Source: Oscillospiraceae bacterium
Lineage (GTDB): Bacteria; Bacillota; Clostridia; Oscillospirales; Ruminococcaceae
Assembly: GCA_021199795.1 (NCBI GenBank)
Contig: JAJQHJ010000003.1
Coordinates: forward strand, 248,001 to 312,000
DNA: 64,000 bases
Direction: 5' to 3'
Positions 47,011-64,000 of the stretch are shown here, one piece after another. A program made the position numbers and the translations under genes. The notes under the pieces are model-generated. The model had not been told where the DNA came from, did not search any database, and worked only from the letters and a program-made list of their open reading frames with translations. Positions within the stretch are counted from its first letter, which is position 1; every line of letters starts with the position of its first letter.

Positions 47011-47505
47011 ATGAATTTAAATATAGTTTTGGTCGAGCCTCAGATTCCTCAGAATACCGGCAATATTTCAAGAACATGTGCTGTCACAGGTGCTAAGCTT
47101 CATCTTGTGAAGCCGCTTGGCTTTGAAACTGATGACAAGCACCTCAAGCGCGCCGGTCTCGACTACTGGGATAAGCTTGACATCACATATTACGACAATT
47201 TAGCTGATTTCTTTGAGAAGACAAATGGCGGAAAGTACTACTACTTCACGACCAAAGGCAGACATGTCCATAGTGATGTGAGCTATGAAGACAACTGCTA
47301 CATCCTTTTCGGCAGGGAAGATAAGGGTCTTCCGGAAGAACTTCTTCACGATAACCCTGACACTTGTGTCCGTATTCCAATGCGCCCCGATCTAAGAAGC
47401 CTGAATCTCTCAAACAGTGTCGCCATAGCAACTTATGAAATCCTCCGTCAGTGGGATTATCCCGATCTCACGAGGGAGGGAAAACTGACAAAATTTGAAT
47501 GGTAA
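47011..47505 (+). CDS. trmL: tRNA (cytidine/uridine-2'-O-)-methyltransferase TrmL
   Basis: A 164-residue SPOUT methyltransferase that modifies the wobble base of tRNA-Leu. Motifs are VEPQIPQNTGNISRTCAVTG (N-terminal), a FGREDKGLP segment and the knot motif RSLNLSNSVAIATYEILRQ. Length is typical of TrmL (YibK). Coupled behind the vitamin B6 kinase; permease A begins 25 bases after its stop and may share this transcript. Confidence 0.95.
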   Translation: MNLNIVLVEPQIPQNTGNISRTCAVTGAKLHLVKPLGFETDDKHLKRAGLDYWDKLDITYYDNLADFFEKTNGGKYYYFTTKGRHVHSDVSYEDNCYILFGREDKGLPEELLHDNPDTCVRIPMRPDLRSLNLSNSVAIATYEILRQWDYPDLTREGKLTKFEW

Positions 47506-47530
47506 AGATGGTAAAGAAAAGGAGAAAATC

Positions 47531-50035
47531 ATGAACAAGTATATTTTCGGACTTGCACTGGAGGGGACTCGACGCAGGAAGAGTCAGACTCTTCTTGTCT
47601 TGGCAATATTGGCTATTTCAATAGCTTTTGTTGTCATGATGATAAGCAGTACAGACAGTATTACTGAGACAAACAAGGACTATCGCTACTCTGTTTATGG
47701 CTCATGGTATGGGGCGATTGGCAATGGCATGGACGGCGACGAAGAGTTCCTGACAAGCCAGGAATGGCTCGATTCACTCGGCGTAAGTACAAGCTGTGGC
47801 ACTATCTCTACTTCCTACTATACTTCCGCTTTCGGTACGATAGATGAAAGCCTGTCAGACATGGGAATAACCCTCATTGAAGGACGTTTGCCACAGGAAT
47901 ACAATGAAATAGCTGTTGAGGAGTCACTTATCAGTGCTCTGGGCTTGGAATGTGAAGTGGGCGACAAGGTAACCCTCAACATTTCCTATATGAATTCAGA
48001 CGGAGGAGCTGTCAGCGTAAGAAGAAACTTCACTCTCTGTGGAATTATCTCCGACTACACTCAGCTCTGGGCAGTTTCCGACTATACAACTCTTGTCGGA
48101 GCAGCAGTTACAGAAGACACTCTTGAAGCTGTAGTGAGTGAAGCTAAAGCCAAAGGCGCAACAAACTCATATGGCACATCCTACTTCTTCACGGTTATTG
48201 AAGGCTACGAGGAAGAGATGCAAACGGATGTCAATAATTATCTCCGTGAATCAAGACCTGAGGGACTACTTTCAAGTCTCAAGTCGGTTGCAGTCAACAC
48301 CCGGGCTTATGGCTCCAACGAAACAGATTCTGATTACAATACAACCTATGTCGCAATGATCTTTGTCATCAGTCTTATAGCTGTTATAGTTATATATGTT
48401 TTGCAGATGCAGACTCAGATAAGGAAGATAGTGCGTTTAAGAAGCCTCGGCTCAACAAAAGGGCAGCTTGCGCTTCTCATTACCTATGAATCACTTATAA
48501 CCTGCATTCCTGCAATGATTATTGGAACGATAGCAGGCGCAATCGGTACATGGATTCTTCTGAGACTGTCTGTTTTCGGCGGCTCGGTTGCTGTTACCGT
48601 TTCGATTCCGTGGGGAATTCTCCTGTCGGCAATAGTTCTCTGGATTCTGGGAGTACTAGCAATCAAAATGGTGACTTTCATGGTCGCCCTTGCAACTCCT
48701 CTGACTGGAAGAATGGGCATGACAACGAAAAAGAAGAAATTCTATGTCAGGCTCCAGAGAATTCTTATTTCCACAATGTCGATAGTTTTATGTGCCTCAG
48801 TTATCTTTACTGTCTTAAATTTGCTCTCGCCTTTGTACGATTACAATTACTGGAGCAATATGTATGACTATTCACTGAGCAGGTGGACATATATAGCCAA
48901 TGCAAAAGCAGGCGATCAGGAGGAGCTTTATAACACCAACTCCCTTGAAGTCATCACCGATGAAAATATCGAGGCTATCCTTTCAGTTCCCGGAATCAAT
49001 AACGCAAGAGGCTACACCCAGATGGAAATCAATGTCCTCGTTGACGGTGAAGCTCAGGACGCTTATATCTATGTCATAGATTCGACCAAGGACTGGTCAA
49101 GCATATTTGATTTATCTGGCATTGATACAGAAGCCTTTGAAAACGGCGACGGTGTACTTCTTGCGTTCACGTCAAAGAATGCTAATCCCGGGTTCAGTAA
49201 AGGTGACACCATAACTCTCTGCCCCGATACATTCTTAGGCGCAATCGAAGCCTTCGTCGATGGTGAGGTCATGGATATAGACATTGTGGATTCCATGTCA
49301 TACTCCTACATAGGCAGCACAGGAAGCGATTTTGCGGTTGTCTGCTCACGTGCATACTTCCAGAAGATTTTAAGTGCCATGCCCGACAACATCAAGTGGT
49401 ACGGAGGAACAAGCAATTCAGGCTTCTACAATTATTCCAAAGTCGGATTTACCGACTTGTTCGTCTATGCAGACAGGAATATTGCCGATTCTGCAACCGA
49501 CAAAACTCTCACTTCAACAATCAGCAATCTGAATATCTATATCAATTCAAATCAACGAACGGTCAACAAAACCTATGCTCAGGATAATTTCCAGTCGGTA
49601 ATTCTCCTATTCGTCAGTGGGAGTTGTATAGCCGTTGTAGTCCTGATTATTCTGTTCAGCACAATCCGCCTCGAAACACAGCGTGAGAAAAAGAGATACG
49701 GGATCCTGCAGGCAATCGGCATGTCCCGCAAGCAGAGAAATCTTGAACTTATGCGAACTGCATTTATAAGAGCGATAGTTGCAGTTGCACTTGGTTGGGG
49801 AGCGTATTTCGTGACAGTAATTTTCAGGAATCTCGACTCTCTGAGAGAAGAGGGAGCGACTGTAGTCAGTATTATTTCAGGCTACATGTCCGATCTCGCA
49901 ACCCGTTATATCTCGAATGGTGCAATGGCGGTGATGACAGTTGTTATATTTGCAGTTATTCTTGCAATCTGCTATGTCTCAAAACTTGTGCTCAACAAAT
50001 ATACTCTCATGGAAATGCTACGTGAGGACAGGTGA
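47531..50035 (+). CDS. FtsX/MacB-type ABC permease, paralogue A
   Basis: An 834-residue membrane protein with two FtsX modules. TM1 is at about 20-40. A first extracytoplasmic domain (about 41-270) starts with YGSWYGAI and contains an EGRLPQEYNEIAVEE segment. TM2-4 follow (about 270-380) with the cytoplasmic RKIVRLRSLGSTKGQ coupling motif. TM5 is at about 410-430, then a second extracytoplasmic domain (about 430-690). TM6-8 carry the second coupling motif KKRYGILQAIGMSRKQR, and the tail is LMEMLREDR. Such permeases need a separate MacB/LolD-type ATPase, and none is beside it. They export peptides or lipoproteins or transmit force to cell wall enzymes. The ATG at 47531 has AAGGAG upstream. Confidence 0.88.
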   Translation: MNKYIFGLALEGTRRRKSQTLLVLAILAISIAFVVMMISSTDSITETNKDYRYSVYGSWYGAIGNGMDGDEEFLTSQEWLDSLGVSTSCGTISTSYYTSAFGTIDESLSDMGITLIEGRLPQEYNEIAVEESLISALGLECEVGDKVTLNISYMNSDGGAVSVRRNFTLCGIISDYTQLWAVSDYTTLVGAAVTEDTLEAVVSEAKAKGATNSYGTSYFFTVIEGYEEEMQTDVNNYLRESRPEGLLSSLKSVAVNTRAYGSNETDSDYNTTYVAMIFVISLIAVIVIYVLQMQTQIRKIVRLRSLGSTKGQLALLITYESLITCIPAMIIGTIAGAIGTWILLRLSVFGGSVAVTVSIPWGILLSAIVLWILGVLAIKMVTFMVALATPLTGRMGMTTKKKKFYVRLQRILISTMSIVLCASVIFTVLNLLSPLYDYNYWSNMYDYSLSRWTYIANAKAGDQEELYNTNSLEVITDENIEAILSVPGINNARGYTQMEINVLVDGEAQDAYIYVIDSTKDWSSIFDLSGIDTEAFENGDGVLLAFTSKNANPGFSKGDTITLCPDTFLGAIEAFVDGEVMDIDIVDSMSYSYIGSTGSDFAVVCSRAYFQKILSAMPDNIKWYGGTSNSGFYNYSKVGFTDLFVYADRNIADSATDKTLTSTISNLNIYINSNQRTVNKTYAQDNFQSVILLFVSGSCIAVVVLIILFSTIRLETQREKKRYGILQAIGMSRKQRNLELMRTAFIRAIVAVALGWGAYFVTVIFRNLDSLREEGATVVSIISGYMSDLATRYISNGAMAVMTVVIFAVILAICYVSKLVLNKYTLMEMLREDR

Positions 50036-50051
50036 GTAATCCGATACATAG

Positions 50052-50077
50052 AAAAGCCGGCTGTGTCCGGCTTTTTT
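50052..50077 (+). terminator. Terminator after permease A
   Basis: GAAAAGCCGG/CCGGCTTTTT hairpin with a 6-base loop and seven T. Confidence 0.9.
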
Positions 50078-50113
50078 TAAAGGCGAAAATCTAAAAAAGT
50101 AGTGTATAGTCTA

Positions 50114-50142
50114 TCGACATCTGAACCTGATTATGGTATACT
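50114..50142 (+). promoter_or_regulatory. Extended -10 promoter of permeases B and C
   Basis: TCGACA (50114-50119), 17-base spacer, TATACT (50137-50142) with TGG just upstream. Confidence 0.72.
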
Positions 50143-50187
50143 TTTGACTAAGGATATAGGATTGAAATCCTGGAACGGAGAATTCAT

Positions 50188-52713
50188 ATGATAAAAACCA
50201 TCTTTTCATTGGCTGCGCAGGGAATGTCAAGAAAAAGGCATCAGACACTTCTTATAGCTGCAATCCTGACAATCTCATTTGCTTTTGCCGTCATGATGAT
50301 AAGCTATACCAGCAGTATAGCTGCCACAAATGTCGAGTACCGCTCGGAGGTTTATGGCACCTGGTACGGGCTGATTCCTATAGGCTATGACGGCGATGTC
50401 GAATTTTTGGAGAGCACAGACGGCATTGACGAAGTCGGCACTACCGTGTCCTATGGCACTGTCAGGACAATCAGTTCAAGCTACAGCATAGGAACTATTG
50501 ACGAAAGCTTCGTTTCTATGGGACCGAACCTTCTTGAGGGCAGGCTTCCGGAAGAAAGCGGAGAGATAGCAATGGAAGCTAATCTTCTCTCGGCTCTTGG
50601 CTATGACTACACGCTGGGACAAAAAATAACTCTTTATCCCTATTTCGGTTATGAAACAGAAGATGGCACGGATTACGTTGGAGTATCGAGAACATACACC
50701 CTCACTGGAATCATAAACAGCTACACCAGCATCTGGGGCTTAACAAATAAGGTCGACCTGAACAGTGCTGTAATCGTTCCGGAAGATGCAGAATCACTCC
50801 TAGCCGAAGCTGCGGAAGAGGCGGAAACAGAAATGAACAGCCCGGTCACGTCCTACTTCTTTACTGTATTGCCTGATGCAGATTCGGACACCATAAAAAC
50901 TACAGTCAATGCCTATCTGAAATCCACCCGGAGCGTGATGAGCGAGCAGAGCATAACTCTGAATTCCTCAGTATCCGCAACCGAAGCGGAAGCAGACTAC
51001 AATACAGTCTATGTAATGCTGATATTCGTTGTCGCCATAATCGCTGTTGTCGTGATCTACATACTTCAGATGCAGTCGGAGGTAAGGCGAATCGTCCGCC
51101 TCAGAAGTCTAGGTGGAACCAAAGGACAGATACGTTTTCTCATAGCTATTGAGACACTTATGCTGACAATTCCATCGCTGATTATGGGTACACTTTTCGG
51201 AGCATTCGGAATCTGGCTTCTACTGACGCTTAGCGTATTTTCCGGTTCGGTAAGCGTTGTAGTGAGCATACCGATGCAGGTTCTTCTTATAGTTGCCCTT
51301 GCGTGGATTCTAGGTATCTTTGTAGTACGGTTCATAACTATCCAGGTTGCTCTTTCGACGCCCTTGACGGGTACAATGGGAATGCAGATAAGAAAGAAGC
51401 GGTTCTATGCGAGATTCCAGAAAGTTCTTATTCTTCTGATGGCGACAGTTTTCTGTGGAACGGTTATATTCACAACCTCAATCCTGCAGGGACCCATCTT
51501 CGGCTACTCATTGTTCTCCGAGAATTACGATTATTTGATAAGCCGGAAAATTCCCTTTATGTCAACAGAAAGACTCCCAGACATCACCGATGACAATGTA
51601 ATAGATATTTCTTCCGTTCCGGGAATCGAAGCAGTTATAGCTTTTTCGACCTATGATGTGAATGTAGGCGTTGAAGACACAGACCTCGGAAACGCTACTT
51701 TGCTTATAATCGATTCCTCACAGGATTGGTCAAAGTTCTATGACATGTCAGGCGTTGATCTTGAAGCATTCGAAAATGGCGAGCAGGTTCTGGTTGTCAG
51801 GACTGACAACTATGATCTCTATGTAAATGGGGAGTTATACTCTGATGATTCATCCTCTGCACCTGAGACCGGAGACATGGTATCGCTTTCCGTTATGACA
51901 GACGTATACTCGAAAGACGATGAGGGTAACGACATTATCGAGCCTGTAAAAGCCGCAACTGTCAACACTGAAATCTCTGATGTAACATCTTCAAAGTCTG
52001 CTATTATCGAGATTCTCGGCATTTCGATTTACGATTCATATTTCATTGTTTGCTCCCGTGCTGTTGTGCAGAGCCTTGTTGATTTGCTTCCGGAGGATGT
52101 GACATGGACTTCTTCTGGGTACGGTTCAGGCGATTGCATGGCAGGGGACACAGTCGGTTTCAATATGATCTTTGCATATGCCGATGAAACCGCCGGGTAT
52201 ATCTCAACCGACAAAACTCTTTCAACGCTTGTATCAACTTCAAAGCTTATGCTTCGGGATAATCTGAGGGAGTATAACTCTTCCTATGTACAAAGCTATC
52301 TCCAACAGATCATCATGTACTCAGTAAGCGGCGGGTGCATAGCTATTGTGGTTCTTATAATCCTTTCAAGTACAATAAGACTTGAGACCCAGCGTGAAAA
52401 GAAGCGTTATGGCATCATGCAGGCTCTTGGAATGTCACGTAGACAGAGAAATCTCAGGCTGATGGGAACTGCATTTGCGCGCTCAATCATTTCGGTCACT
52501 CTCGGCTGGGGAGCATACAGGCTATATGCATTCATCCGGAACATCGGAAGAGTGACAAGCGAAAGTACAGTAGTAGTTTCCGTGCAATCGTCTGGTGTAA
52601 ATCCGGTAATAATGTCTGTTATGCTGTTTTTAGTTGTATTTATGATATGCTATGTCTCTAAGCTCGGATTGAATAAATATAACCTTATGGACATGCTTCG
52701 CGAGGACAGATAG
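50188..52713 (+). CDS. FtsX/MacB-type ABC permease, paralogue B
   Basis: An 841-residue paralogue of A with the same architecture: TM1 at about 20-40, first outer domain opening with YGTWYGLIPIGYDGD, the RRIVRLRSLGGTKGQ motif, a second outer domain and the RYGIMQALGMSRRQR motif, ending LMDMLREDR. Where A, C and D have Ile/Leu-Pro-Trp before TM4, B has Ile-Pro-Met. It has its own promoter, with CGGAGAA before the ATG, and permease C follows 11 bases later. No ATPase gene is adjacent. Confidence 0.88.
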   Translation: MIKTIFSLAAQGMSRKRHQTLLIAAILTISFAFAVMMISYTSSIAATNVEYRSEVYGTWYGLIPIGYDGDVEFLESTDGIDEVGTTVSYGTVRTISSSYSIGTIDESFVSMGPNLLEGRLPEESGEIAMEANLLSALGYDYTLGQKITLYPYFGYETEDGTDYVGVSRTYTLTGIINSYTSIWGLTNKVDLNSAVIVPEDAESLLAEAAEEAETEMNSPVTSYFFTVLPDADSDTIKTTVNAYLKSTRSVMSEQSITLNSSVSATEAEADYNTVYVMLIFVVAIIAVVVIYILQMQSEVRRIVRLRSLGGTKGQIRFLIAIETLMLTIPSLIMGTLFGAFGIWLLLTLSVFSGSVSVVVSIPMQVLLIVALAWILGIFVVRFITIQVALSTPLTGTMGMQIRKKRFYARFQKVLILLMATVFCGTVIFTTSILQGPIFGYSLFSENYDYLISRKIPFMSTERLPDITDDNVIDISSVPGIEAVIAFSTYDVNVGVEDTDLGNATLLIIDSSQDWSKFYDMSGVDLEAFENGEQVLVVRTDNYDLYVNGELYSDDSSSAPETGDMVSLSVMTDVYSKDDEGNDIIEPVKAATVNTEISDVTSSKSAIIEILGISIYDSYFIVCSRAVVQSLVDLLPEDVTWTSSGYGSGDCMAGDTVGFNMIFAYADETAGYISTDKTLSTLVSTSKLMLRDNLREYNSSYVQSYLQQIIMYSVSGGCIAIVVLIILSSTIRLETQREKKRYGIMQALGMSRRQRNLRLMGTAFARSIISVTLGWGAYRLYAFIRNIGRVTSESTVVVSVQSSGVNPVIMSVMLFLVVFMICYVSKLGLNKYNLMDMLREDR

Positions 52714-52724
52714 GAGAAAGAATC

Positions 52725-55304
52725 ATGTTTAAAACAATTTTTGGACTCGCCTTTCAAGGCATCAAACGCAGACGCAGGCAGTCGCTTCTGATTTTCTTCG
52801 TCCTGCTCATTTCGTTCACATTTGCAATTATACTACTGAGCTATTCAAGCAGTATATCTTCAACCAATTCTCAGCTTCGGCTTGACACCTACGGCAGTTG
52901 GTATGGAGCTATTGGCGAGGGAACTGACGGAGACCTCGAGTATCTTGAAAGCACCGAATGGGTTGACGACATCGGGATGAGTGTCAACTACGGTAGCGCA
53001 AGTGCCATGCTCGGCGATACTGTTATGGGCTCTTTGGATTACGGGACCGTTGACGATTACATGCTCGATATGGGCGTAATCTTGGAAAGTGGAAAGCTTC
53101 CCGAGGCAGACGATGAGATTGCTATAGAATCGACCGAGCTTACTGAATTCGGCTTAGCATCTGCTTCTTCGATAACTCTGAGATTTACTATCTATTCTGA
53201 ATCGGGTGAGGAATCCACTGTTATAGAGAAGACCTTCAAGATTGTCGGAGTTATCAAGCAGTACACGGGTCTTTGGGACACAAACGCAACACTCAATGAA
53301 GCTATCCTCTCGGAAGAGGGTATAAACGAATTGTTGGCTGAGGCGACAGAGGCTCTTGGCTCTGAGGTGAGCGTTACTTCTGATTATGCATACTTCTTCA
53401 CGGTCAGATCAGGCTATGAAAGCACATTTGAATCGGAAGTCAACAGCTATCTGTGGAACGTAAGAGAGGGAGCAAACGTAAGATACGTCTCGGTAAACTC
53501 TGTCATGTCTATGGAAGCCGATGAGGCTCAGCTCAACACGTTCTATGTCTGGCTCGTGCTGGCTGTAACTCTGTTGGCGGTCGTAATGATTTACATACTG
53601 CAAATGCAATCGGATGTAAGAAAAATAGTAAGGCTCAGGAGCATCGACTCATCAAAAGGTCAGGTCAGACTGCTTATTCTCATGGAAGCCCTCATGCTCT
53701 GTGTTCCGGCTCTTCTCTTGGGTACTATTCTCGGACTTTTTGGAATCAAGGCACTTCTTGGACTGAGTGTCTATTCCGGCTCGGTCAATATTGCGGTAAG
53801 TCTCCCTTGGAATTATCTTCTCACCTCGGCTGCCGTCTGGATTGTGGGAGTGCTTCTCGTCAGGATTCTCACCATTCAGGTTGCCCTTGCAACGCCATTG
53901 ACTGGAAGAATGGGAATGCAGAGAAACAAGTCGAACTTCTACGGCAAATTCCGCCGTGTTCTCATCATGCTCATGGCAATTCTTCTCTCAGTATCAACGC
54001 TGTTCACCGTAGTAAACGTAGCCGAGCCTCTCAGTAACTATCAGGAATGGACTTCAAAGTGGTCCTATTGCTTCTATCCCAATTATCGCCACAATAATAT
54101 CGCAGTTTATCTTGATGACAGTACTTTATCTGAGATTGCTTCCGCTCCGGGAGTCACCGATGTGGTTGCTTTCTCAAGTTTCTACTATGTTATAACATCA
54201 GATGACAGCGAAGCAAAAAAAGTAAATGTGATTGTCATGGATTATGAAGATGTCGCAAAATATCTTGATGTTTCCGAAGTAGATGAGTTGTCTTATGAAA
54301 ACGGTGAATCGGTAATCGTTCAAAATGTTGAAAGCGAAAGCAATATTCCTGAAGCCGGAGACACCGTCACAGTTAATATTGACTATGCAAATAGCATGGG
54401 CGTTTATGGCTATGTTCTCAGTGAAGATCCATCGGAGTTGGTGAGCATATCGGTAAATGTTGCTTCTTCGCAGACCGTCCCGACTTTCAAAGATACGTTG
54501 CCATTTACGATGGAATTAATCTCTGATACATACGAGTTTGCCGGAAGTGGAGAAGGAATCTTGGGTACAAGCTTTGTCATATGTTCAAGGACGCTTCTCC
54601 AGAATATTCTGGATGAAATCCCGGAGGGCACAATCTGGGAAATTTATGATGGCGGTGTGATGTTCTATTACGGTCAGAGTGAAGCTCAGTATTATCAGGC
54701 GTTAGTCTATACAGATACAAACGCTGAGAACCTCGCTACCGACACCGCAATGTCGAATATTCTGAAGCTGACCAAAGACCCGACAAGTTACATGCAGGAT
54801 ATTTACTACTACAATCTCAACAGTCAGAGAGAAGTCAACTACTCTAACGCTCAGGTTTATCAGCAATCTATCATCATGATTATTGTGAGTGGCGTGTGCA
54901 TTGCAATTGTGGTGCTACTGATTCTTGTAAGTACGCTCAGGCTCGAAACCGAAAGCGAAAAGAAACGCTATGGCATCTTGCAGGCAATCGGAATGTCGAA
55001 GCGGCAAAGAAATCTTGAACTTATCCGCAAATCTCTGGTGCGAAGCGTTGTATCTGTAGTTGTGGCAGTTATCAGCTATCTGGGATATTATTTACTTCTT
55101 AATATCTCAAGTCTTATTGCAGGTGCAAGCCCGACAGCAATCATTTCCACACTGTTCACAGCTCTTGCGACCTATGGCTTAACAACGCCTGTGCTTCTTA
55201 TAATGCTACTGGTTATGTTTGTGGTAACATTCGCAATCTGCTTCGGCTCAAAGCTGAGTATAAATAAGTATTCCATCATGGACATGCTAAGTGAAGATAG
55301 CTGA
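52725..55304 (+). CDS. FtsX/MacB-type ABC permease, paralogue C
   Basis: An 859-residue paralogue; the N-terminal module is closest to copy E (both share QSLLIFFVLL and ESTEWVDxxGxSVNYGSAS). First outer domain opens YGSWYGAIGEGTDGD. Coupling motifs are RKIVRLRSIDSSKGQ and KKRYGILQAIGMSKRQR. Before TM4 it has SLPWNYLL, the place where copy E has its stop codon. The tail is IMDMLSEDS, less conserved than in A, B and D. Probably co-transcribed with B (11-base gap, AGGAGA site). Terminator at 55315-55345. Confidence 0.88.
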   Translation: MFKTIFGLAFQGIKRRRRQSLLIFFVLLISFTFAIILLSYSSSISSTNSQLRLDTYGSWYGAIGEGTDGDLEYLESTEWVDDIGMSVNYGSASAMLGDTVMGSLDYGTVDDYMLDMGVILESGKLPEADDEIAIESTELTEFGLASASSITLRFTIYSESGEESTVIEKTFKIVGVIKQYTGLWDTNATLNEAILSEEGINELLAEATEALGSEVSVTSDYAYFFTVRSGYESTFESEVNSYLWNVREGANVRYVSVNSVMSMEADEAQLNTFYVWLVLAVTLLAVVMIYILQMQSDVRKIVRLRSIDSSKGQVRLLILMEALMLCVPALLLGTILGLFGIKALLGLSVYSGSVNIAVSLPWNYLLTSAAVWIVGVLLVRILTIQVALATPLTGRMGMQRNKSNFYGKFRRVLIMLMAILLSVSTLFTVVNVAEPLSNYQEWTSKWSYCFYPNYRHNNIAVYLDDSTLSEIASAPGVTDVVAFSSFYYVITSDDSEAKKVNVIVMDYEDVAKYLDVSEVDELSYENGESVIVQNVESESNIPEAGDTVTVNIDYANSMGVYGYVLSEDPSELVSISVNVASSQTVPTFKDTLPFTMELISDTYEFAGSGEGILGTSFVICSRTLLQNILDEIPEGTIWEIYDGGVMFYYGQSEAQYYQALVYTDTNAENLATDTAMSNILKLTKDPTSYMQDIYYYNLNSQREVNYSNAQVYQQSIIMIIVSGVCIAIVVLLILVSTLRLETESEKKRYGILQAIGMSKRQRNLELIRKSLVRSVVSVVVAVISYLGYYLLLNISSLIAGASPTAIISTLFTALATYGLTTPVLLIMLLVMFVVTFAICFGSKLSINKYSIMDMLSEDS

Positions 55305-55314
55305 ACAAATATCT

Positions 55315-55345
55315 AAGCTCGAACTATTCGGGCTTTCTATATTTT
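55315..55345 (+). terminator. Terminator after permease C
   Basis: AAGCTCGAA (55315-55323) with TTCGGGCTT (55327-55335), one wobble pair, 3-base loop, T-rich tail. Confidence 0.78.
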
Positions 55346-55348
55346 CTC

Positions 55349-55377
55349 TTGCAATTTTATCTATACTATGCTATTAT
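55349..55377 (+). promoter_or_regulatory. Extended -10 promoter of permease D
   Basis: TTGCAA (55349-55354), 17-base spacer, TATTAT (55372-55377) with TGC upstream. It resembles the copy E promoter base by base (TTGCAATT.TATCTAT.) but has TATTAT in place of TATAAT. Confidence 0.75.
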
Positions 55378-55414
55378 TTTTTTGGAATTAGAATTTAAAA
55401 AGGGGAGATCAGCA

Positions 55415-57874
55415 ACGTTAAAAAACATCTTTTCACTTGCTTTTGAGGGCTTGAGACGGCGCAAGCGGCAGACGCTTATCATAGTCTCCGTTCTGACAAT
55501 ATCTCTTCTTGTAGCAGTTCTTGTAATAAGCTATTCCGGCAGCATCACCGCCACGAATGAAGCCTATCGCTACACCATCTACGGCAGCTGGTACGGCTCT
55601 ATACCAAAAACTCAAGATGGCGACTATGAGTTTCTCATATCTCAGGACTGGCTCGACTCTCTCGGAACAAGCACAAACTACGGCACTGTTTCAGGCTATG
55701 GTATAGGAACGGTTGACGATAATCTTTCCAATATGGGAATAACGTTGTCTGAGGGCAGACTTCCTGAATCGAGTGGCGAAATAGCCGTTGAAGAGGCTCT
55801 TTTGAGTGCTCTTGGCTATGACCCTGTTGTAGGGCAGAAAATTGCGGTGTCGATAGTGTTTTATCAGGATGATTTCAACACAGCGAACAACATCATCGTC
55901 ACAAAGAATTTCACTGTAACCGGCATTATCTCGAACTATACTAATCTCTGGTCAACTTCAATGTATTGCACACTGAATTCCGGCATAATTACCAAGGATG
56001 ATGCGGAATCTCTCTATGCTCAGGCTATACAAGCCGGCTCCCGGAAGAATATTACAGTACCCGACCCATCTGTGTCCTACTACTTCACTGTCAAGGATGG
56101 TTGTGAGGACATAATGAAAGAAAGCGTCAACGCTTATCTTCGGGAGACAAGAGACAGTGCTTTATCTACAGACAAGACGGTTTTCGTGAATTCTCTTGCA
56201 TATTCTCATAATGCCTCAGAAGCAAGCTATAACACTTTTTATGTTGCTTTAATTTTTGTAGTCTCATTGCTTGCTGTTATCGTTATTTACGCGCTTCAGC
56301 TTCAGCCTGAGGTTCAGAAAGTAGTGAGGCTCAGAAGCTTAGGCGCAACAAAAGGGCAGGTAAGGCTTCTCATTTTCACTGAGACAATGCTTTGCTGCAT
56401 TCCGTCTTTGATTTTAGGCACTGTTCTAGGAGCACTCGGAATTGTGATTCTTCTTAAGCTCAGTGTATTCACCGGTTCTATTGCTATTGTTGTGAACATT
56501 CCATGGTCGGCACTTCTCCCGGCAGTTGCCCTTTGGATATTGGGAGTATTGGCGATCAGAATAGTCACGCTACAGGTAGCCTTTGCTACTCCTCTTACCG
56601 GCAGAATGGGCATGACAGCAAAGAAAAGGCGTATATCTCAGAAGTTCCAAAAGATTCTCATCATTGCAATGTCGGCGACGCTATGCATTGCGGTGCTTTT
56701 CACGTTCCTTAACTCTCTTTCAGCTGTGTACAATTATGGCATATGGAACAACACTTATGACTATATAATCAGCGATATAACCTTAACCTATGAGGGAATT
56801 ACGAACGATGATATCGAAACTATGAATTCCGTTTTCGGCGTTGATAATGTTTTAGGCTGGTCTATATCATACGCAAACGTAACCGCGGGATCGGGCGATA
56901 GCATTTCTGCAACTCTTTTCATAATAGACGGCACAGCCGATTGGTCGTATACCTTTGACTTCACGAATGTTGATACAGAAGAGTTTGAAAACGGTGACAG
57001 CGTTATAGTCACGTTTGCTTCAAAGGACGATGCAACCGCCGCCAGCCTGAGTGATGAAGTAACTGTCAACTATCAGAATGTATCTGTTAGCGCAAGTGTC
57101 GCTTCAACTCAGATAACCGACATCCTGGACTACGGCGTTTATGGGATGCCGAGCGTTTATTCCGGCGAATGCGGGATTATCTGCTCAAGGGCATTTCTCC
57201 AAAGGATGATAGATTCTCTTCCCGAAAATTCCAGGATATACACCTTGCAACATTCCTATGGAGCAGGCGATGAAGTGTCGATATTTGAGCGTGCAGTCGG
57301 TTTTGCCAACAGAAATACCGCCGATGCTTCGACCGATAAGACTCTCGTTTCTACCGCATCCAGGCTTCACCTGAGCGTCAGCGACAACCGCCGGGCTGCC
57401 AATGATTCTTATGTTCAGGATTACTTGCAAACTATAATTATGCTCTATGTCAGCGGAATCTGCATATCTGTCATAGTTCTAATAATTCTTTCAAGCACTA
57501 TCAAGCTTGAAACCCAGCGCGAGAAGAGAAATTATGGTATCCTGCAGGCAATCGGCATGTCACGCAGTCAAAGAAATCTCAGGCTTATGGGAACTGCGCT
57601 TGTCCGTTCGACTGTGGCAATAATACTTGGCTGGGGAGCATACTTCTCCACAGTAATATTCAAGAATATAGACAAAATTATAGACGGGAGCAGCACAGTA
57701 TTAAGTCTTGCAGTTAACAATCTCAAAAACATCATAACCTACTATAACATGCCTGGTTGGATACTCATTCTGATTTCCGTTCTCCTGTTTGCGGCAGTAT
57801 TCATGATTTGCTATGTTTCAAAGTTAGGCTTGAACAAGTATACTTTGATGGAAATGCTCCGTGAGGACAGATAA
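55415..57874 (+). CDS. FtsX/MacB-type ABC permease, paralogue D, apparent ACG start
   Basis: About 819 residues with intact architecture: TM1, first outer domain (YGSWYGSIPKTQDGD), motif QKVVRLRSLGATKGQ, INIPWSALLP-like segment before TM4, second outer domain, KRNYGILQAIGMSRSQR, tail LMEMLREDR. Alignment with copy E (M-F-K-T-I-F-S-L-A) places the first codon at 55415, where the sequence is ACG. AGGGGAG ends 7 bases upstream, exactly where a start should be. In-frame TTGs at 55349 and 55382 lie in the promoter or at the transcription start. The next possible start, a TTG at about 55451, would trim the N-terminus and has no good site. Either ACG is used weakly or the gene lost its start recently. 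Confidence 0.8.
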   Translation, partial: TLKNIFSLAFEGLRRRKRQTLIIVSVLTISLLVAVLVISYSGSITATNEAYRYTIYGSWYGSIPKTQDGDYEFLISQDWLDSLGTSTNYGTVSGYGIGTVDDNLSNMGITLSEGRLPESSGEIAVEEALLSALGYDPVVGQKIAVSIVFYQDDFNTANNIIVTKNFTVTGIISNYTNLWSTSMYCTLNSGIITKDDAESLYAQAIQAGSRKNITVPDPSVSYYFTVKDGCEDIMKESVNAYLRETRDSALSTDKTVFVNSLAYSHNASEASYNTFYVALIFVVSLLAVIVIYALQLQPEVQKVVRLRSLGATKGQVRLLIFTETMLCCIPSLILGTVLGALGIVILLKLSVFTGSIAIVVNIPWSALLPAVALWILGVLAIRIVTLQVAFATPLTGRMGMTAKKRRISQKFQKILIIAMSATLCIAVLFTFLNSLSAVYNYGIWNNTYDYIISDITLTYEGITNDDIETMNSVFGVDNVLGWSISYANVTAGSGDSISATLFIIDGTADWSYTFDFTNVDTEEFENGDSVIVTFASKDDATAASLSDEVTVNYQNVSVSASVASTQITDILDYGVYGMPSVYSGECGIICSRAFLQRMIDSLPENSRIYTLQHSYGAGDEVSIFERAVGFANRNTADASTDKTLVSTASRLHLSVSDNRRAANDSYVQDYLQTIIMLYVSGICISVIVLIILSSTIKLETQREKRNYGILQAIGMSRSQRNLRLMGTALVRSTVAIILGWGAYFSTVIFKNIDKIIDGSSTVLSLAVNNLKNIITYYNMPGWILILISVLLFAAVFMICYVSKLGLNKYTLMEMLREDR

Positions 57875-57999: not shown

Positions 58000-59223
58000 A
58001 TGGCAGGATTAAACAAGGTCAGTATTGACGACATCAGTGTAAAGGGCAAGAAAGTTCTTGTCAGAGTTGATTTCAACGTTCCGCTCAAGGACGGCGTTAT
58101 CACCAATGACAACAGAATCACAGCAGCTCTTCCCACTATCAAGAAGTTAGTTGCAGACGGCGGCAAGGTTGTACTTTGCTCCCACCTCGGCAAGCCGAAG
58201 AACGGTCCTGAGGACAAGTTCTCACTCGCTCCAGCAGCCAAGAGACTTGCGGAGCTTATGGAGGGCACCAAGGTCACATTTGCCAAGGATGATGAGGTTG
58301 TAGGCGAGAATGCAAAGAAAGCTGTCGCTGAAATGCAGAATGGCGAAATCGTAGTTCTCGAAAACACAAGATTCCGTGGCAACGAAGAGACCAAGAACGG
58401 TGAGGGCTTCTCCAAGGAACTTGCTGATCTCGTTGACGACGAAGTATTCGTAATGGATGCTTTCGGCTCCGCTCACAGAGCTCACGCTTCCACAGCAGGT
58501 GTCACCAAGTTTGTCAAGGAAACTGCTGTTGGATACCTCATGCAGAAAGAAATCACATATCTTGGCAATGCAGTTGAGAACCCTGTCAGACCGTTCGTAG
58601 CTATTTTGGGCGGCGCAAAGGTAGCAGACAAGCTCAATGTTATCTCTAACCTCCTCGAAAAGTGCGATACTCTTATCATCGGCGGCGGCATGGCTTACAC
58701 ATTCCTCAAGGCTGAGGGCTATGAAATCGGTACTTCACTTGTAGACGATGAAAAGCTTTCCTATTGTGCAGAAATGCTCGAAAAGGCTAAGTCTATGGGC
58801 AAGAAGCTTCTTTTGCCGATTGATACAGTCGTTGCAAAGTCATTCCCTGATCCTATCGACGGTGAGATTGAGACCTGCGTCGTAGATTCTCATAACATTC
58901 CCGCTGATTGCATGGGTCTTGATATCGGTCCTAAGACCGCTGAGCTTTTCGCAAACGAAGTCAGCAATGCGAAGACCGTTGTCTGGAACGGACCTATGGG
59001 CGTATTCGAGAACCCGACTCTGGCAAAGGGAACTCTTTCTGTTGCAAAGGCTCTCGCTGAGACCGACGCTACAACTGTTATCGGCGGTGGCGACTCTGCT
59101 GCAGCAGTCATCAATCTCGGTTTTGCTGACAAGATGACCCATATTTCCACCGGTGGTGGAGCATCCCTTGAATACCTCGAGGGCAAGGTTCTCCCTGGAA
59201 TCGACGTTATCGCCGACAAGTAA
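58000..59223 (+). CDS. pgk: Phosphoglycerate kinase
   Basis: A 407-residue glycolytic kinase making ATP from 1,3-bisphosphoglycerate. The signature is [14 protein letters not shown] near residue 20, followed by [19 protein letters not shown], the hinge [11 protein letters not shown] and the nucleotide-site GGGDSAAAV near the C-terminus. Length is normal. AAAGGAGA precedes the ATG. First gene of a glycolytic operon lacking gap, embedded between permeases D and E. Confidence 0.97.
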
Positions 59224-59237
59224 TTGAATCTTTTTAT

Positions 59238-59262
59238 GGAGCGGAGCGATGAGTTCCGCTCC
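59238..59262 (+). repeat. Hairpin in the pgk-tpiA gap
   Basis: A perfect 8-bp GC-rich stem GGAGCGGA (59238-59245) with TCCGCTCC (59255-59262) and a 9-base loop. With no T tail it is more likely an mRNA stability or processing element than a terminator. Confidence 0.65.
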
Positions 59263-59292
59263 GTCTGTAATGCTTTTGAAAGGATAGATTTC

Positions 59293-60063
59293 ATGAAAAA
59301 AGATATTCGCCGCGCAGTTATCGCCGGCAACTGGAAGATGAATAAAACTCGTCCCGAGACTGAATCTCTCATCACAGACTTAAAGCCCCTGGCTGAGAAT
59401 GCGGGCTGTGAAGTAGTCATCTGCGTTCCGTTTACAAATCTTGAAACTGCTGTAAGACTTACTGCCGGAACCAACATCAAGGTTGGTGCGCAGAATTGCC
59501 ACTTTGCAAAGTCTGGTGCATACACAGGTGAAGTAAGTGCAGATATGCTCAAGGAAGTCGGAGTTGAATATGTAGTTCTTGGACATAGCGAGCGCAGACA
59601 GTATTTCGGCGAAACCGATGAGACAGTCAACAAGAGAACAAAAGCAGCACTTGAAGCTGGTTTAAAGCCTATAGTTTGCGTAGGCGAGCTTCTCTGGGAG
59701 CGTGAGGCTAACATAACTGAGGAAGTAATTTCACGCCAGATCAAGCTTGATTTCGCAGGAATCTCCTCGGATGAGCTTCAGAACTGCATCATCGCTTACG
59801 AGCCTGTCTGGGCAATCGGAACCGGCAAAACCGCAACTGCTGATCAGGCTGAGGAAGTATGTGCATTCATCAGAAATGTTCTTGCAGGTCTTTATGGCGC
59901 GGATGTTGCTGAGAAAATCACCATCCAGTATGGCGGCTCTATGAATGCGGGAAATGCGGCTGAGCTTCTGTCGAAAACCAATGTTGACGGTGGACTTATC
60001 GGCGGCGCATCACTCAAGGCTCCTGACTTTGCGGCAATCATTAATGCCGCAACCAACGGTTGA
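59293..60063 (+). CDS. tpiA: Triosephosphate isomerase
   Basis: A 256-residue TIM barrel interconverting the triose phosphates. Catalytic residues sit in IAGNWKMNKT (Lys), VLGHSERRQYF (His) and YEPVWAIGTGKTA (Glu, loop 6), with phosphate-binding YGGSM. The ATG at 59293 has GAAAGGAT upstream; the open frame begins right after pgk but its first 23 codons, across the hairpin, are not family-like. gpmI follows 14 bases later. Confidence 0.97.
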   Translation: MKKDIRRAVIAGNWKMNKTRPETESLITDLKPLAENAGCEVVICVPFTNLETAVRLTAGTNIKVGAQNCHFAKSGAYTGEVSADMLKEVGVEYVVLGHSERRQYFGETDETVNKRTKAALEAGLKPIVCVGELLWEREANITEEVISRQIKLDFAGISSDELQNCIIAYEPVWAIGTGKTATADQAEEVCAFIRNVLAGLYGADVAEKITIQYGGSMNAGNAAELLSKTNVDGGLIGGASLKAPDFAAIINAATNG

Positions 60064-60077
60064 AAGGGGACTGACAA

Positions 60078-61646
60078 ATGAAACCTGTTGTACTCATAGT
60101 TATGGATGGTGTCGGCTTCTCAAAGACCGGTCTTGGAGACGCTGTTACACTTGCAAATACGCCGAATCTCGATAAGCTTCTCAAGGAGCGTCCGAACACC
60201 CGTCTTAAGGCTCACGGAACAGCAGTCGGACTTCCGTCTGACGACGACATGGGTAACTCAGAGGTTGGTCACAACGCTCTTGGTTGCGGTCAGATTTACT
60301 CTCAGGGTGCAAAGCTAGTTAACGAGTCAATCGAATCCGGAAAGATGTTTACATCCGATACCTGGAATGAGCTTGTTTCAAATTGCAAGTCCCACCATTC
60401 AACTCTTCATTTCCTGGGACTTCTCTCTGACGGTAATGTTCATTCCAACATATCCCACCTAAAGCAGATGATCATCAAGGCTAAGGAATGCGGAGTTGAG
60501 CACGTAAGATGCCATATTCTTCTCGATGGAAGAGACGTTCCTGCAACCTCAGCTCTTGTCTATGTTGATGAGCTTGAGACTCTTCTTTCGTCGCTCAATG
60601 ATTCCACCTTTGAAGCTAAGATTGCATCCGGCGGCGGAAGAATGAAAATCACAATGGACAGATACCAGGCTAACTGGGGCATGGTTGAAGCTGGCTGGAA
60701 CACTCATGTTCATGGTCAGGGAAGACAGTTTGCATCTGCAAAGGAAGCAATTGAAACCTACCGCAGTGAAATTGACGGTGTAATTGATCAAGATCTCCCT
60801 GCATTCGTTATTGCTGAGAACGGTGAGCCTGTTGGAAAAATCAAGGACGGCGATTCAGTTATACTTTACAACTTCAGAGGTGACCGTGCGCTCGAGATTT
60901 CGATGGCATTCGATAACAAAGACTTTGCTGCATTTGACAGGGGAGAGAAGCCGGATGTTGTTTATGCTGGTATGCTCCAGTATGACGGCGATCTGAAGCT
61001 TCCCGAAAAGTTCCTTGTAAATCCTCCAGAAATCAAGAACACGCTCTCTGAGCTTCTGGTTGCAAATGGCTTGAGACAGTATGCTGTTTCCGAAACTCAG
61101 AAATATGGTCACGTAACCTACTTCTGGAACGGCAATAAGTCTGAAAAGTTCTCCGAAGAGCTTGAAACATTCAAGGAGATTCCCTCTGACAATGTTTCCT
61201 TTGACGAGCGTCCGTGGATGAAGTCCGCTGAGATCACTGACGACCTCATCGCTGCAATGCGCAGTGGTAAATATGATTTCATCAGATGTAACTATCCTAA
61301 CGGAGACATGGTAGGTCACACCGGAAACCTCGATGCAACCATCACTGGCGTTGAGTCGGTAGATCTCGGAATTGCAAGAGTCCTTAAGGTTGCTGATGAA
61401 CTTGGTGTCATCGTCCTTATCACTGCTGATCATGGTAACGCCGATGAAATGCTTGAGAAGAACAAGAAAGGTCAGATTCAGGTCAGAACCGCTCATTCTC
61501 TCAACCCCGTTCCGTTCATCATCTATGATAACGACCATGACTGGAGAATCAAGGATGGCAATTTCGGACTTGCAAACGTAGCTCCGACAGTTGCAACTCT
61601 CTTTAATCTCACTCCTCCTGATTGTTGGGAAGAGAGCATGATCTAA
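60078..61646 (+). CDS. gpmI: 2,3-bisphosphoglycerate-independent phosphoglycerate mutase
   Basis: A 522-residue Mn-dependent mutase of the alkaline phosphatase superfamily. It has LIVMDGVGFS at the N-terminus (metal-binding Asp), MGNSEVGHNALG with the phosphoserine near residue 61, LLDGRDVPATS, a NFRGDRALE segment, and ITADHGNADEM near the C-terminus. Slightly longer than the usual 510. AAAGGGG precedes the ATG. Activity of this Mn2+ enzyme could respond to the Mn homeostasis genes at 4-7 kb, but this is only inference. Confidence 0.97.
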   Translation: MKPVVLIVMDGVGFSKTGLGDAVTLANTPNLDKLLKERPNTRLKAHGTAVGLPSDDDMGNSEVGHNALGCGQIYSQGAKLVNESIESGKMFTSDTWNELVSNCKSHHSTLHFLGLLSDGNVHSNISHLKQMIIKAKECGVEHVRCHILLDGRDVPATSALVYVDELETLLSSLNDSTFEAKIASGGGRMKITMDRYQANWGMVEAGWNTHVHGQGRQFASAKEAIETYRSEIDGVIDQDLPAFVIAENGEPVGKIKDGDSVILYNFRGDRALEISMAFDNKDFAAFDRGEKPDVVYAGMLQYDGDLKLPEKFLVNPPEIKNTLSELLVANGLRQYAVSETQKYGHVTYFWNGNKSEKFSEELETFKEIPSDNVSFDERPWMKSAEITDDLIAAMRSGKYDFIRCNYPNGDMVGHTGNLDATITGVESVDLGIARVLKVADELGVIVLITADHGNADEMLEKNKKGQIQVRTAHSLNPVPFIIYDNDHDWRIKDGNFGLANVAPTVATLFNLTPPDCWEESMI

Positions 61647-61762: not shown

Positions 61763-64000
61763 ATGTTCAAAACAATTTTCTCACTTGCATTTGAGGGCAT
61801 AAAGCGAAGAAAGAGGCAGTCGCTTCTGATTTTCTTCGTCCTGCTCGTGTCGTTCACGTTTGCAATAATACTTCTGAGCTACACTTCAAGCGTCGCTGAG
61901 ACTAATTCACAGCTTCGCTACGATACATATGGCTCGTGGTATGGCGCAATCTCCGACGGAATCGACAGTGATCTTGAATATCTCGAAAGCACCGAATGGG
62001 TTGATGAGGTCGGCATAAGTGTCAACTACGGCTCAGCGTCGGTCATGGTCGGCGGACTTTCGCAAGGCTCACTTAAAATAGGAACAGCTGACGAAAACCT
62101 AGCCGAAATGGGAATAAACCTTGAAAGTGGACGAATGCCGACAAGTTCAAACGAAATCGCAATAGAAGCGGCGTCGCTCAATGAGGTCGGCTATGGTGCA
62201 ACCACCGGATCAAATATAACTATGCAATGGACATTCAAGAATGACAGCAATTCTGTCACAGTTGAAAGAACATTTAATGTTGTTGGTGTTATAAGCGAAT
62301 ACACGGGTCTATGGGATATCGATGCGAACTTGAACACCGCCATTATCACTGAAGAGGCTATGGCTGACATTCTTGCCGAAGCAGAAGAATCTATTGGCGA
62401 AATCACATCCCTCAGCACCGAGATAACCTACTTCTTCACCGTTAAATCAGGCATGGAGAATGGTGTTGAAAGCACCGTCAACAGCTATCTTTACCAGAAC
62501 CGTGAGGGCTCGACTATCAGAAGAGTCACTATAAACTCTGTCGTCGACATGGAAAGCGAAGCAGCACAGACCAATATGGTTTATCTTGTACTTATCTTAG
62601 CGATTACTATTTTAGCAGTTGTAATGATTTACATCTTACAGATGCAGGTGGAAGTAAAGCGAATCGTCCGATTCAGAAGCATTGGTGGTTCCAAGGGTCA
62701 GCTGAGATTTCTTATTCTCATAGAAACACTTATGCTTGCAATTCCGGCGGTCTTGATCGGAGTATTGCTTGGATTCTTAGGAATAAAGATTCTTCTCGGC
62801 GTGAGTGTATATTCCGGCTCGGTTGACGTTGCCGTTAGTATTCCGTGAAACTATCTTTTCATGGCATTGTCACTCTGGATTGTTGGCATACTTTTAGTCC
62901 GCATGATTACGTTCCAAGTTGCGCTTTCAACTCCATTGGTCGGCAGAATGGGAATGCAGAGAAGCAAGAACAAAGTCGTTGTCGGCTTCAGACGTGCCCT
63001 TATTATGCTTATGGCAACGCTTCTGTGTATTTCGGCGGTGTTTACTACTGTAAATCTGGCAGAACCGGTGAGCGAGTATAACTATTGGACTTCACTCTGG
63101 TCTTATTACATCAGTGAAATGGACGGAACTTTTTTAAGAAATGAATTTTCTCTTCCTGATCTGTCCGAATATGAAGCTGAGTTTCTGGCACTTGAGGGTG
63201 TCACTGATTTTGTTGGCTTTAATGACTTCTACGCATATGTAACCACCTCTGATGAAGAGTCCGGCGATTCTGTGGTCGTTATCACTATGGACTGGGACGA
63301 CCTGCAGAGGTATGTTGACACTACAGGGATTGACCAGGAAGCCTATGAGAGTGGAGAAAGCGTTATCGTCCAGATTGCTGCTGATAGAATAGACGGCACA
63401 TACTACGAAATGGAAGCCATCAATGTGAGCACCGGCGAAACAGTAACAATATCTGTGACTGAAAGCGAGGCTGTTACAGTTGTTCCGGAAGAGAACTCAG
63501 ATATTACAATCTCAATAGATTACAACCATTTCGACAGTTATTTCAGTGCTCACGGTAATACCACTCTTGATGAAAGCATTTTTGAGAGCTCGGGGCTTGT
63601 GAGTGTCGATGTAAATATCGGTGCTGTTCAGCTTATCGAGAGCGATGAGACCCTTGTTTCGCTCCTACAATACGACCGCTCCGACAGATACTCCATTGAG
63701 AACTACAACTACTACGTAATCTGCGCTCTGCCGGTTTTGCAGGAGATTGTCGACGAGATTCCCGAGGGCACACAATGGTGGATTGAAAACGAAAGATTTT
63801 TGCGTGGACAGCAGGAGGTCGGCTACAATCAGGGCTTCATATTCACCAACTTGAACGCAGGAGATCTCGGAGTGGACACAGCGGTAACAAAGCTTCTCTC
63901 TCAGATAGTGTATAAATCCTCCACTGATCTTGGACCGTTCGAAGCGGCATATTATAAGCTCTATAACTTCCGTGAGATAAATTACGCCAACGCACAAGTT
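61763..64000 (+). pseudogene. FtsX/MacB-type ABC permease, paralogue E, with in-frame TGA, runs off window
   Basis: Starts ATG at 61763 with AAAGGGGAAA upstream. Codons 1-361 give TM1, the first outer domain (YGSWYGAISDGIDSD), the KRIVRFRSIGGSKGQ motif and TM2-3. Codon 362 (62846-62848) is TGA in SIP-stop-NYL, where A, C and D have Trp. The same frame then continues for 384 sense codons to the window end. It encodes TM4 (LWIVGILLVRMIT), the TPLVGRMGMQRS linker, TM5 and most of a second outer domain that is about 30 residues longer than in C. Nothing else looks damaged. As written it yields a 361-residue fragment. TGA is a normal stop elsewhere in the window, so this is best read as a very recent nonsense mutation or a sequence error. 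The 3-prime end is not in the window. Confidence 0.8.

What the first reader, a model, noticed from the sequence alone, without database searches (positions are those of the whole stretch)
62846..62848. Single in-frame TGA in an otherwise intact permease (copy E)
Translating 61763 onwards, codon 362 is TGA, and the frame is then open for 384 further codons to the window end with clear homology to copies A-D on both sides. Copies A, C and D have Trp (TGG) here and copy B has Met, so one G-to-A change explains it. No other stop or frameshift is seen, so the event is very recent, or it is a sequencing error, a mixed strain population, or readthrough. No ribosome binding site precedes the next in-frame ATG (62861), so a two-part protein is unlikely.
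Basis: seen in the sequence. Interest (0 to 1): 0.7.

Follow-up and report, generated by a model that had tools for sequence, protein, structure and literature searches.

The report
Recently broken transporter gene, single stop
One gene of a large family of membrane transport proteins in a relative of Ruminococcus carries a single premature stop codon; intact copies exist in related species, and the break looks like an ordinary, very recent gene loss rather than a new way of reading the code.

Summary
The FtsX-type permease gene at 61763 has one in-frame TGA at codon 362 (62846-62848); the frame then stays open past the window end to a TAA at codon 895. Tryptophan stands at this column in 24 of 24 fetched close relatives, including the full-length syntenic orthologue of a sister species; remoter copies vary there. 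TGA is a real stop here: 11 of 38 chosen window ORFs end in it, prfB is uninterrupted, none of 40 tRNA matches reads UGA, and no tRNA-Sec passes its cut-off. The downstream part shows no relaxed constraint, so the change is young. It is not unique: of 84 family copies in 11 genomes, 8 show one visible break each (1 TGA, 3 TAG, 4 frameshifts) and 1 is truncated. Four long housekeeping genes in the same 11 genomes show none, which argues (p about 0.01) against plain sequencing error. Best reading: a fresh nonsense allele in an expanded, redundant permease family with gene birth and death. Reads, a second strain and proteomics were not available, and the genome's own tRNA-Trp is not in the assembly, so a one-base error, a mixed population or some leakiness cannot be excluded. 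Interest is low.

The parts
61763..62845 (+). 5' part of the FtsX-type permease gene (codons 1-361), with a ribosome-site-like sequence before it; holds the first FtsX domain up to the stop
   Evidence: (PF02687, 29.6 bits, cut-off 25.5)
62846..62848 (+). in-frame TGA, codon 362; Trp in 24 of 24 fetched close relatives
62849..64000 (+). 3' part of the same gene up to the window end, frame open; no Pfam or NCBIfam hit in this stretch; continues outside the window to a TAA (codon 895, ends at C9:312447)
62861..62863 (+). next in-frame ATG, without a recognisable ribosome binding site
47495..57874 (+). four uninterrupted paralogues A-D in tandem (47495-50035, 50188-52713, 52725-55304, 55349-57874)
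58000..61646 (+). pgk, tpiA and iPGM genes that lie upstream of the permease here and in the full-length syntenic orthologue L041

Best explanation
A single, very recent nonsense substitution in one member of a large redundant FtsX-type permease family. Shown: the TGA, the intact relatives, the normal use of TGA as a stop in this genome, and other copies with one break in sister genomes. Inferred: translation ends after residue 361, leaving a fragment with the first outer domain and about three membrane helices (by eye, no topology program) that is probably degraded; the locus is a nonsense allele, fixed or segregating in the sampled population, tolerated because nine other close copies remain in the genome.
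For: 24 of 24 fetched close relatives have Trp at the column. The syntenic orthologue L041 (PGK-TIM-iPGM-permease-regulator-ABC exporter) is full length. TGA ends 11 of 38 chosen window ORFs, and prfB is uninterrupted. Of 40 tRNA matches 38 anticodons were read and the 2 partial ones read CGT (Thr) by eye; none pairs with UGA. No tRNA-Sec over the cut-off. Changes private to the window gene are 63 synonymous to 13 nonsynonymous after the TGA and 72 to 19 before it, so no decay yet. Of 84 family copies in 11 genomes 8 show one visible break each and 1 is truncated. rpoB, rpoC, polC and uvrA are unbroken in 11 of 11 of these genomes; with equal error rates the chance that all 8 breaks fall in the family is 0.011.
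Against: No reads and no second strain of the species were available. The genome is probably a metagenome bin, since all 24 loci come from records titled MAG; the base is then a consensus. The lack of decay downstream is equally expected if the base is an error or is read through. The control genes are single-copy and a repeat family may assemble less well; control lengths were rounded to one value per gene. The genome's own tRNA-Trp was not found in the assembly, so its anticodon is inferred from relatives.
Confidence: 0.8

Rival explanations
1. The TGA is a sequencing or consensus error of the bin: the real gene is intact.
For: One base only and no decay downstream; the genome is probably a metagenome bin (by its relatives).
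Against: Breaks are concentrated in this family: 8 in about 71,000 codons against 0 in about 55,000 codons of four housekeeping genes in the same 11 genomes; p 0.011 only, and the controls are single-copy.
Confidence: 0.11
2. The TGA is read through, with Trp inserted at low level by tRNA-Trp, giving a small amount of full-length permease.
For: Leaky UGA with Trp insertion in E. coli and Salmonella, and readthrough of a TGA mutant in B. subtilis, are cited in PMC7918605 (discussion, part 1 of 2); close relatives have Trp here; no relaxation downstream.
Against: No dedicated signal: the 100 nt from the stop fold less well than the shuffle mean (z +1.18); no UCA tRNA among 40 matches and no tRNA-Sec over the cut-off; tRNA-Trp(CCA) found in 11 of 16 scanned loci of relatives has a 5-bp anticodon stem by eye, not the 4-bp stem linked to UGA decoding in PMC13092985. 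Other broken copies carry TAG or frameshifts, which this cannot explain. The own tRNA-Trp was not seen.
Confidence: 0.06
3. Two-part permease: the ribosome reinitiates at the ATG at 62861, 12 bases after the stop, and two half-proteins assemble.
For: An in-frame ATG lies close behind the stop and the frame is open for 528 codons from it. The syntenic orthologue L041 has no ATG at this place, so the ATG need not be ancestral.
Against: No ribosome site before it; 10 of 19 aligned homologues have ATG there without any stop before it, so it is a common sense codon of the family and no sign of a new start; the stop cuts the FtsX profile match at position 79 of 120.
Confidence: 0.03

Closest known systems
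FtsX-like permease family (Pfam PF02687), long type with two FtsX stretches
   Same: FtsX domain hit over the cut-off in the part before the stop; the four paralogues have FtsX hits with two stretches each in 841-859 residues
   Different: This copy ends inside the first FtsX domain; no separate ABC ATPase gene was seen directly beside it (by eye), only a fused ABC exporter two genes on
Young bacterial pseudogenes or population-level in-frame stops (PMC7918605)
   Same: Single in-frame stop, open frame on both sides, purifying signature retained; that paper reports that such stops tend to persist for a short time, on the scale of population polymorphism (results and discussion, part 1 of 2 of each)
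   Different: That paper argues that many such genes are not pseudogenes and favours readthrough; here no second strain with the same stop is at hand, so persistence cannot be measured

Membership tests
FtsX-like permease (PF02687) | FtsX domain at the curated cut-off | tested here: met
   29.6 bits against 25.5, residues 273-351, profile positions 2-79 of 120: the match is cut shortly before the stop
Pseudogene by nonsense mutation | Premature stop where intact homologues have a sense codon | tested here: met
   24 of 24 fetched close relatives have Trp (19, 5)
Pseudogene by nonsense mutation | Relaxed constraint after the stop | tested here: not met
   Private changes 63 syn to 13 nonsyn after the stop against 72 to 19 before it; expected if the stop is very young, but also if error or readthrough
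Pseudogene by nonsense mutation | No full-length product | not testable with these tools
   needs proteomics or ribosome profiling
UGA reassigned to Trp (code 4-like) | TGA not used as stop and RF2 lost | tested here: not met
   TGA ends 11 of 38 chosen ORFs; prfB uninterrupted
UGA reassigned to Trp (code 4-like) | tRNA-Trp with UCA anticodon or altered stem | tested here: inconclusive
   No UCA tRNA among 40 matches, but the own tRNA-Trp is not in the assembly; 11 tRNA-Trp genes of relatives have CCA
Selenoprotein | tRNA-Sec gene; Cys or Sec at the site in homologues | tested here: not met
   No RF01852 match over the cut-off, the six weak ones lie on Ser and Gly tRNAs; close relatives have Trp

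The most novel reading that the evidence does not exclude
The broken permease copies of this genus are a standing pool of silent or low-level alleles: the family exchanges segments between copies (mosaic identity), so a copy with one fresh break can still donate or regain segments, a form of recombinational variation of outer-facing domains.
Probability: 0.06. Interest if true: 0.5.

Novelty: new member of a known kind. Interest (0 to 1): 0.12.

Why it matters
By itself it matters little: one more young nonsense allele. It is a useful caution that 9 of 84 copies of this permease family in these genomes are broken or truncated, which matters when transporters are counted from annotated bins.

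Tried and rejected
Reassigned code: not supported; the one gap is that the own tRNA-Trp is not in the assembly. Selenocysteine: rejected. Structure after the stop: none unusual. Restart at 62861: no ribosome site. Same locus in viral contigs with either of two bases at the site: 0 matches. Recent copying of the stop region from an own paralogue: against 8 of the 9 other close own copies (C34:1007 was not held) the longest exact shared tract is 50 bases, at 2569-2618 of the gene, far from the stop. Paper searches: UGA readthrough, bacteria, pseudogene, tryptophan: 3 listed, two opened, one not; FtsX, permease, Ruminococcus, gene conversion: 3 listed, none opened; in-frame stop codon, metagenome-assembled genomes, pseudogene, permease: 3 listed, none opened. 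Of PMC7918605 I saw the abstract and part 1 of 2 of the results and of the discussion; of PMC13092985 the abstract and 12 passages of one term search.

A count in my notebook (18 homologues) is wrong; one search shows 19.

Full report
What was checked. The window is bases 248001-312000 of contig C9 in a 2.16 Mb genome in 43 contigs. The 24 loci found in the named collection come from records titled MAG: Ruminococcus sp., Oscillospiraceae bacterium or (one) Bacillota bacterium, so this genome is probably a metagenome bin too (inference). Translating from 61763 gives 361 residues, one TGA at 62846-62848, and an open frame to the window end. The next 447 bases outside the window complete the gene: 532 codons after the TGA, then a TAA. 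Only one stop interrupts it.

What the gene is. The part before the stop matches the FtsX permease domain (29.6 bits, cut-off 25.5), up to profile position 79 of 120 at residue 351. The part from the stop to the window end hits no Pfam or NCBIfam family. Four uninterrupted paralogues lie upstream in tandem. The protein search finds 11 places in the own genome: the window copy, nine others at 43-74% identity with open frames of 795-916 residues, and one remote match at 28%. Of 31 genomes of the genus, G000 and G006-G015 hold the close family; G025 has one copy at 35%; the others have only weak matches.

Is the stop derived? 24 loci were fetched by one scan. I aligned 19 of them, and all 19 have a Trp codon at the column. 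The five left out (L050, L053, L055, L058, L061) also have Trp there; L050, L053 and L061 are themselves copies with a break elsewhere. In remoter copies, own copy B and several in other genomes, the column holds Met, Val, Ile or Thr, so Trp is not essential to the whole family. Locus L041 is the syntenic orthologue: pgk, tpiA and iPGM before it, and the same small regulator-like gene, ABC exporter and mtaB after it. It is full length.

Is TGA a stop in this organism? Of 54 listed ORFs I took 38 by eye, leaving out 16 short or overlapping ones (the two parts of the gene itself among them): 24 end in TAA, 11 in TGA, 3 in TAG. prfB (RF2) is present and uninterrupted. The assembly has 40 tRNA matches. 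38 anticodons were read, and two partial ones at contig ends read CGT (Thr) by eye; none pairs with UGA. No tRNA-Sec match passes the cut-off; the six weak ones lie on Ser and Gly tRNAs. Against a clean answer: the own tRNA-Trp is not among the matches, nor are Lys(CTT) and Glu(CTC). I scanned 16 of the 30 loci; 11 hold tRNA-Trp, all with CCA, and in 9 of these it stands in one cluster with Lys(CTT), Glu(CTC) and Met. So the cluster most likely lies in an assembly gap here (inference). The anticodon stem of these tRNA-Trp genes has 5 base pairs by eye. The 4-bp stem variant linked to UGA decoding (PMC13092985: abstract and 12 passages seen) is therefore not indicated in relatives.

How old is it? 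Against L041, dN/dS is 0.085 before and 0.128 after the stop; against L043 it is 0.092 and 0.095. L041 against L043, neither with a stop, gives 0.103 and 0.121. Codons at which the window gene alone differs from L041 and L043 are 72 synonymous to 19 nonsynonymous before the stop and 63 to 13 after it. There is no sign of decay. The stop is much younger than the split of these species, or it is an error, or the downstream part is still made; this test cannot tell these apart.

Is it special? Of 84 copies in the 11 genomes (one contig-end fragment, the G025 copy and the weak remote matches left out), 75 have an open frame of 769-952 residues, the shortest at a contig end. 8 show one visible break each: the window TGA; TAG in G007, G012 and G009; and changes of reading frame between matched pieces in G009 (two), G012 and G015. 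One in G013 lacks the end of the protein. The comparison genes rpoB, rpoC, polC and uvrA have no stop and no broken frame in 11 of 11 of the same genomes. The polC search also lists weak partial matches below the cut-off, in another and smaller polymerase-like frame; six of them, in G000, G006, G007, G009, G011 and G015, contain one stop and start further upstream than their stop-free counterparts. I took these as running over the gene start and did not count them. In the other 20 genomes some control hits are split: G004 rpoB and rpoC, G002 rpoC and polC (one TAA), and several at contig ends; these are outside the comparison. Given equal error rates, the chance that all 8 breaks fall in the permease family is 0.011 (control lengths rounded to single values per gene). 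So the excess is probably real, though a repeat family may assemble less well than single-copy genes.

Mechanism. Most likely translation stops after residue 361 and the product is a non-functional fragment (inferred). The ATG at 62861 has no ribosome site; 10 of 19 aligned homologues have ATG there, though the syntenic L041 does not. The RNA from the stop on is no better folded than shuffles (z +1.18). Low-level UGA leakage with Trp insertion is cited for E. coli and Salmonella (PMC7918605, discussion) and needs no special feature here. The same paper reports that in-frame stops are widespread and tend to be short-lived, on the scale of population polymorphism (results), and argues that many are not pseudogenes (abstract). 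The first fits this case; the second cannot be tested here.

Verdict.

Noticed in passing
61763-64000 and its continuation in L009; L041, L043, L045, L046, L048: The gene is a mosaic: its second outer domain is 83-100% identical to L041 and L043 in blocks of 30 codons (columns 450-780), while parts of its membrane segments are closer to other family members (columns 300-330: 91% to L045 against 77% to the syntenic L041), which suggests segment exchange within the family.
   Followed up: partly
L117 and L146 (G000:C35:20755-20782); L115 (G007), L136 (G008), and G013:C27:1047 by the listing only: A displaced 3' half of the tRNA-Trp gene, like an attachment site of an integrated element, occurs in this genome and in three relatives. 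The own intact tRNA-Trp is not among the 40 tRNA matches of this assembly.
   Followed up: partly
L109, L110, L111, L142-L145, L148: Seven other family copies with one visible break each (three TAG, four changes of frame) and one truncated copy in sister genomes.
   Followed up: partly
L009:3435-5657 (just outside the window): A short regulator-like ORF and an ABC exporter follow the permease and are conserved in order in L041; names are by eye from the sequence.
   Followed up: no
G000:C34:76116, G007:C11:72859, G006:C11:23201 and similar places: Weak uvrA-profile matches to ORFs of about 226-262 residues lie within about 3 kb of some family copies; they may be the ABC ATPase partners of these permeases.
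   Followed up: no
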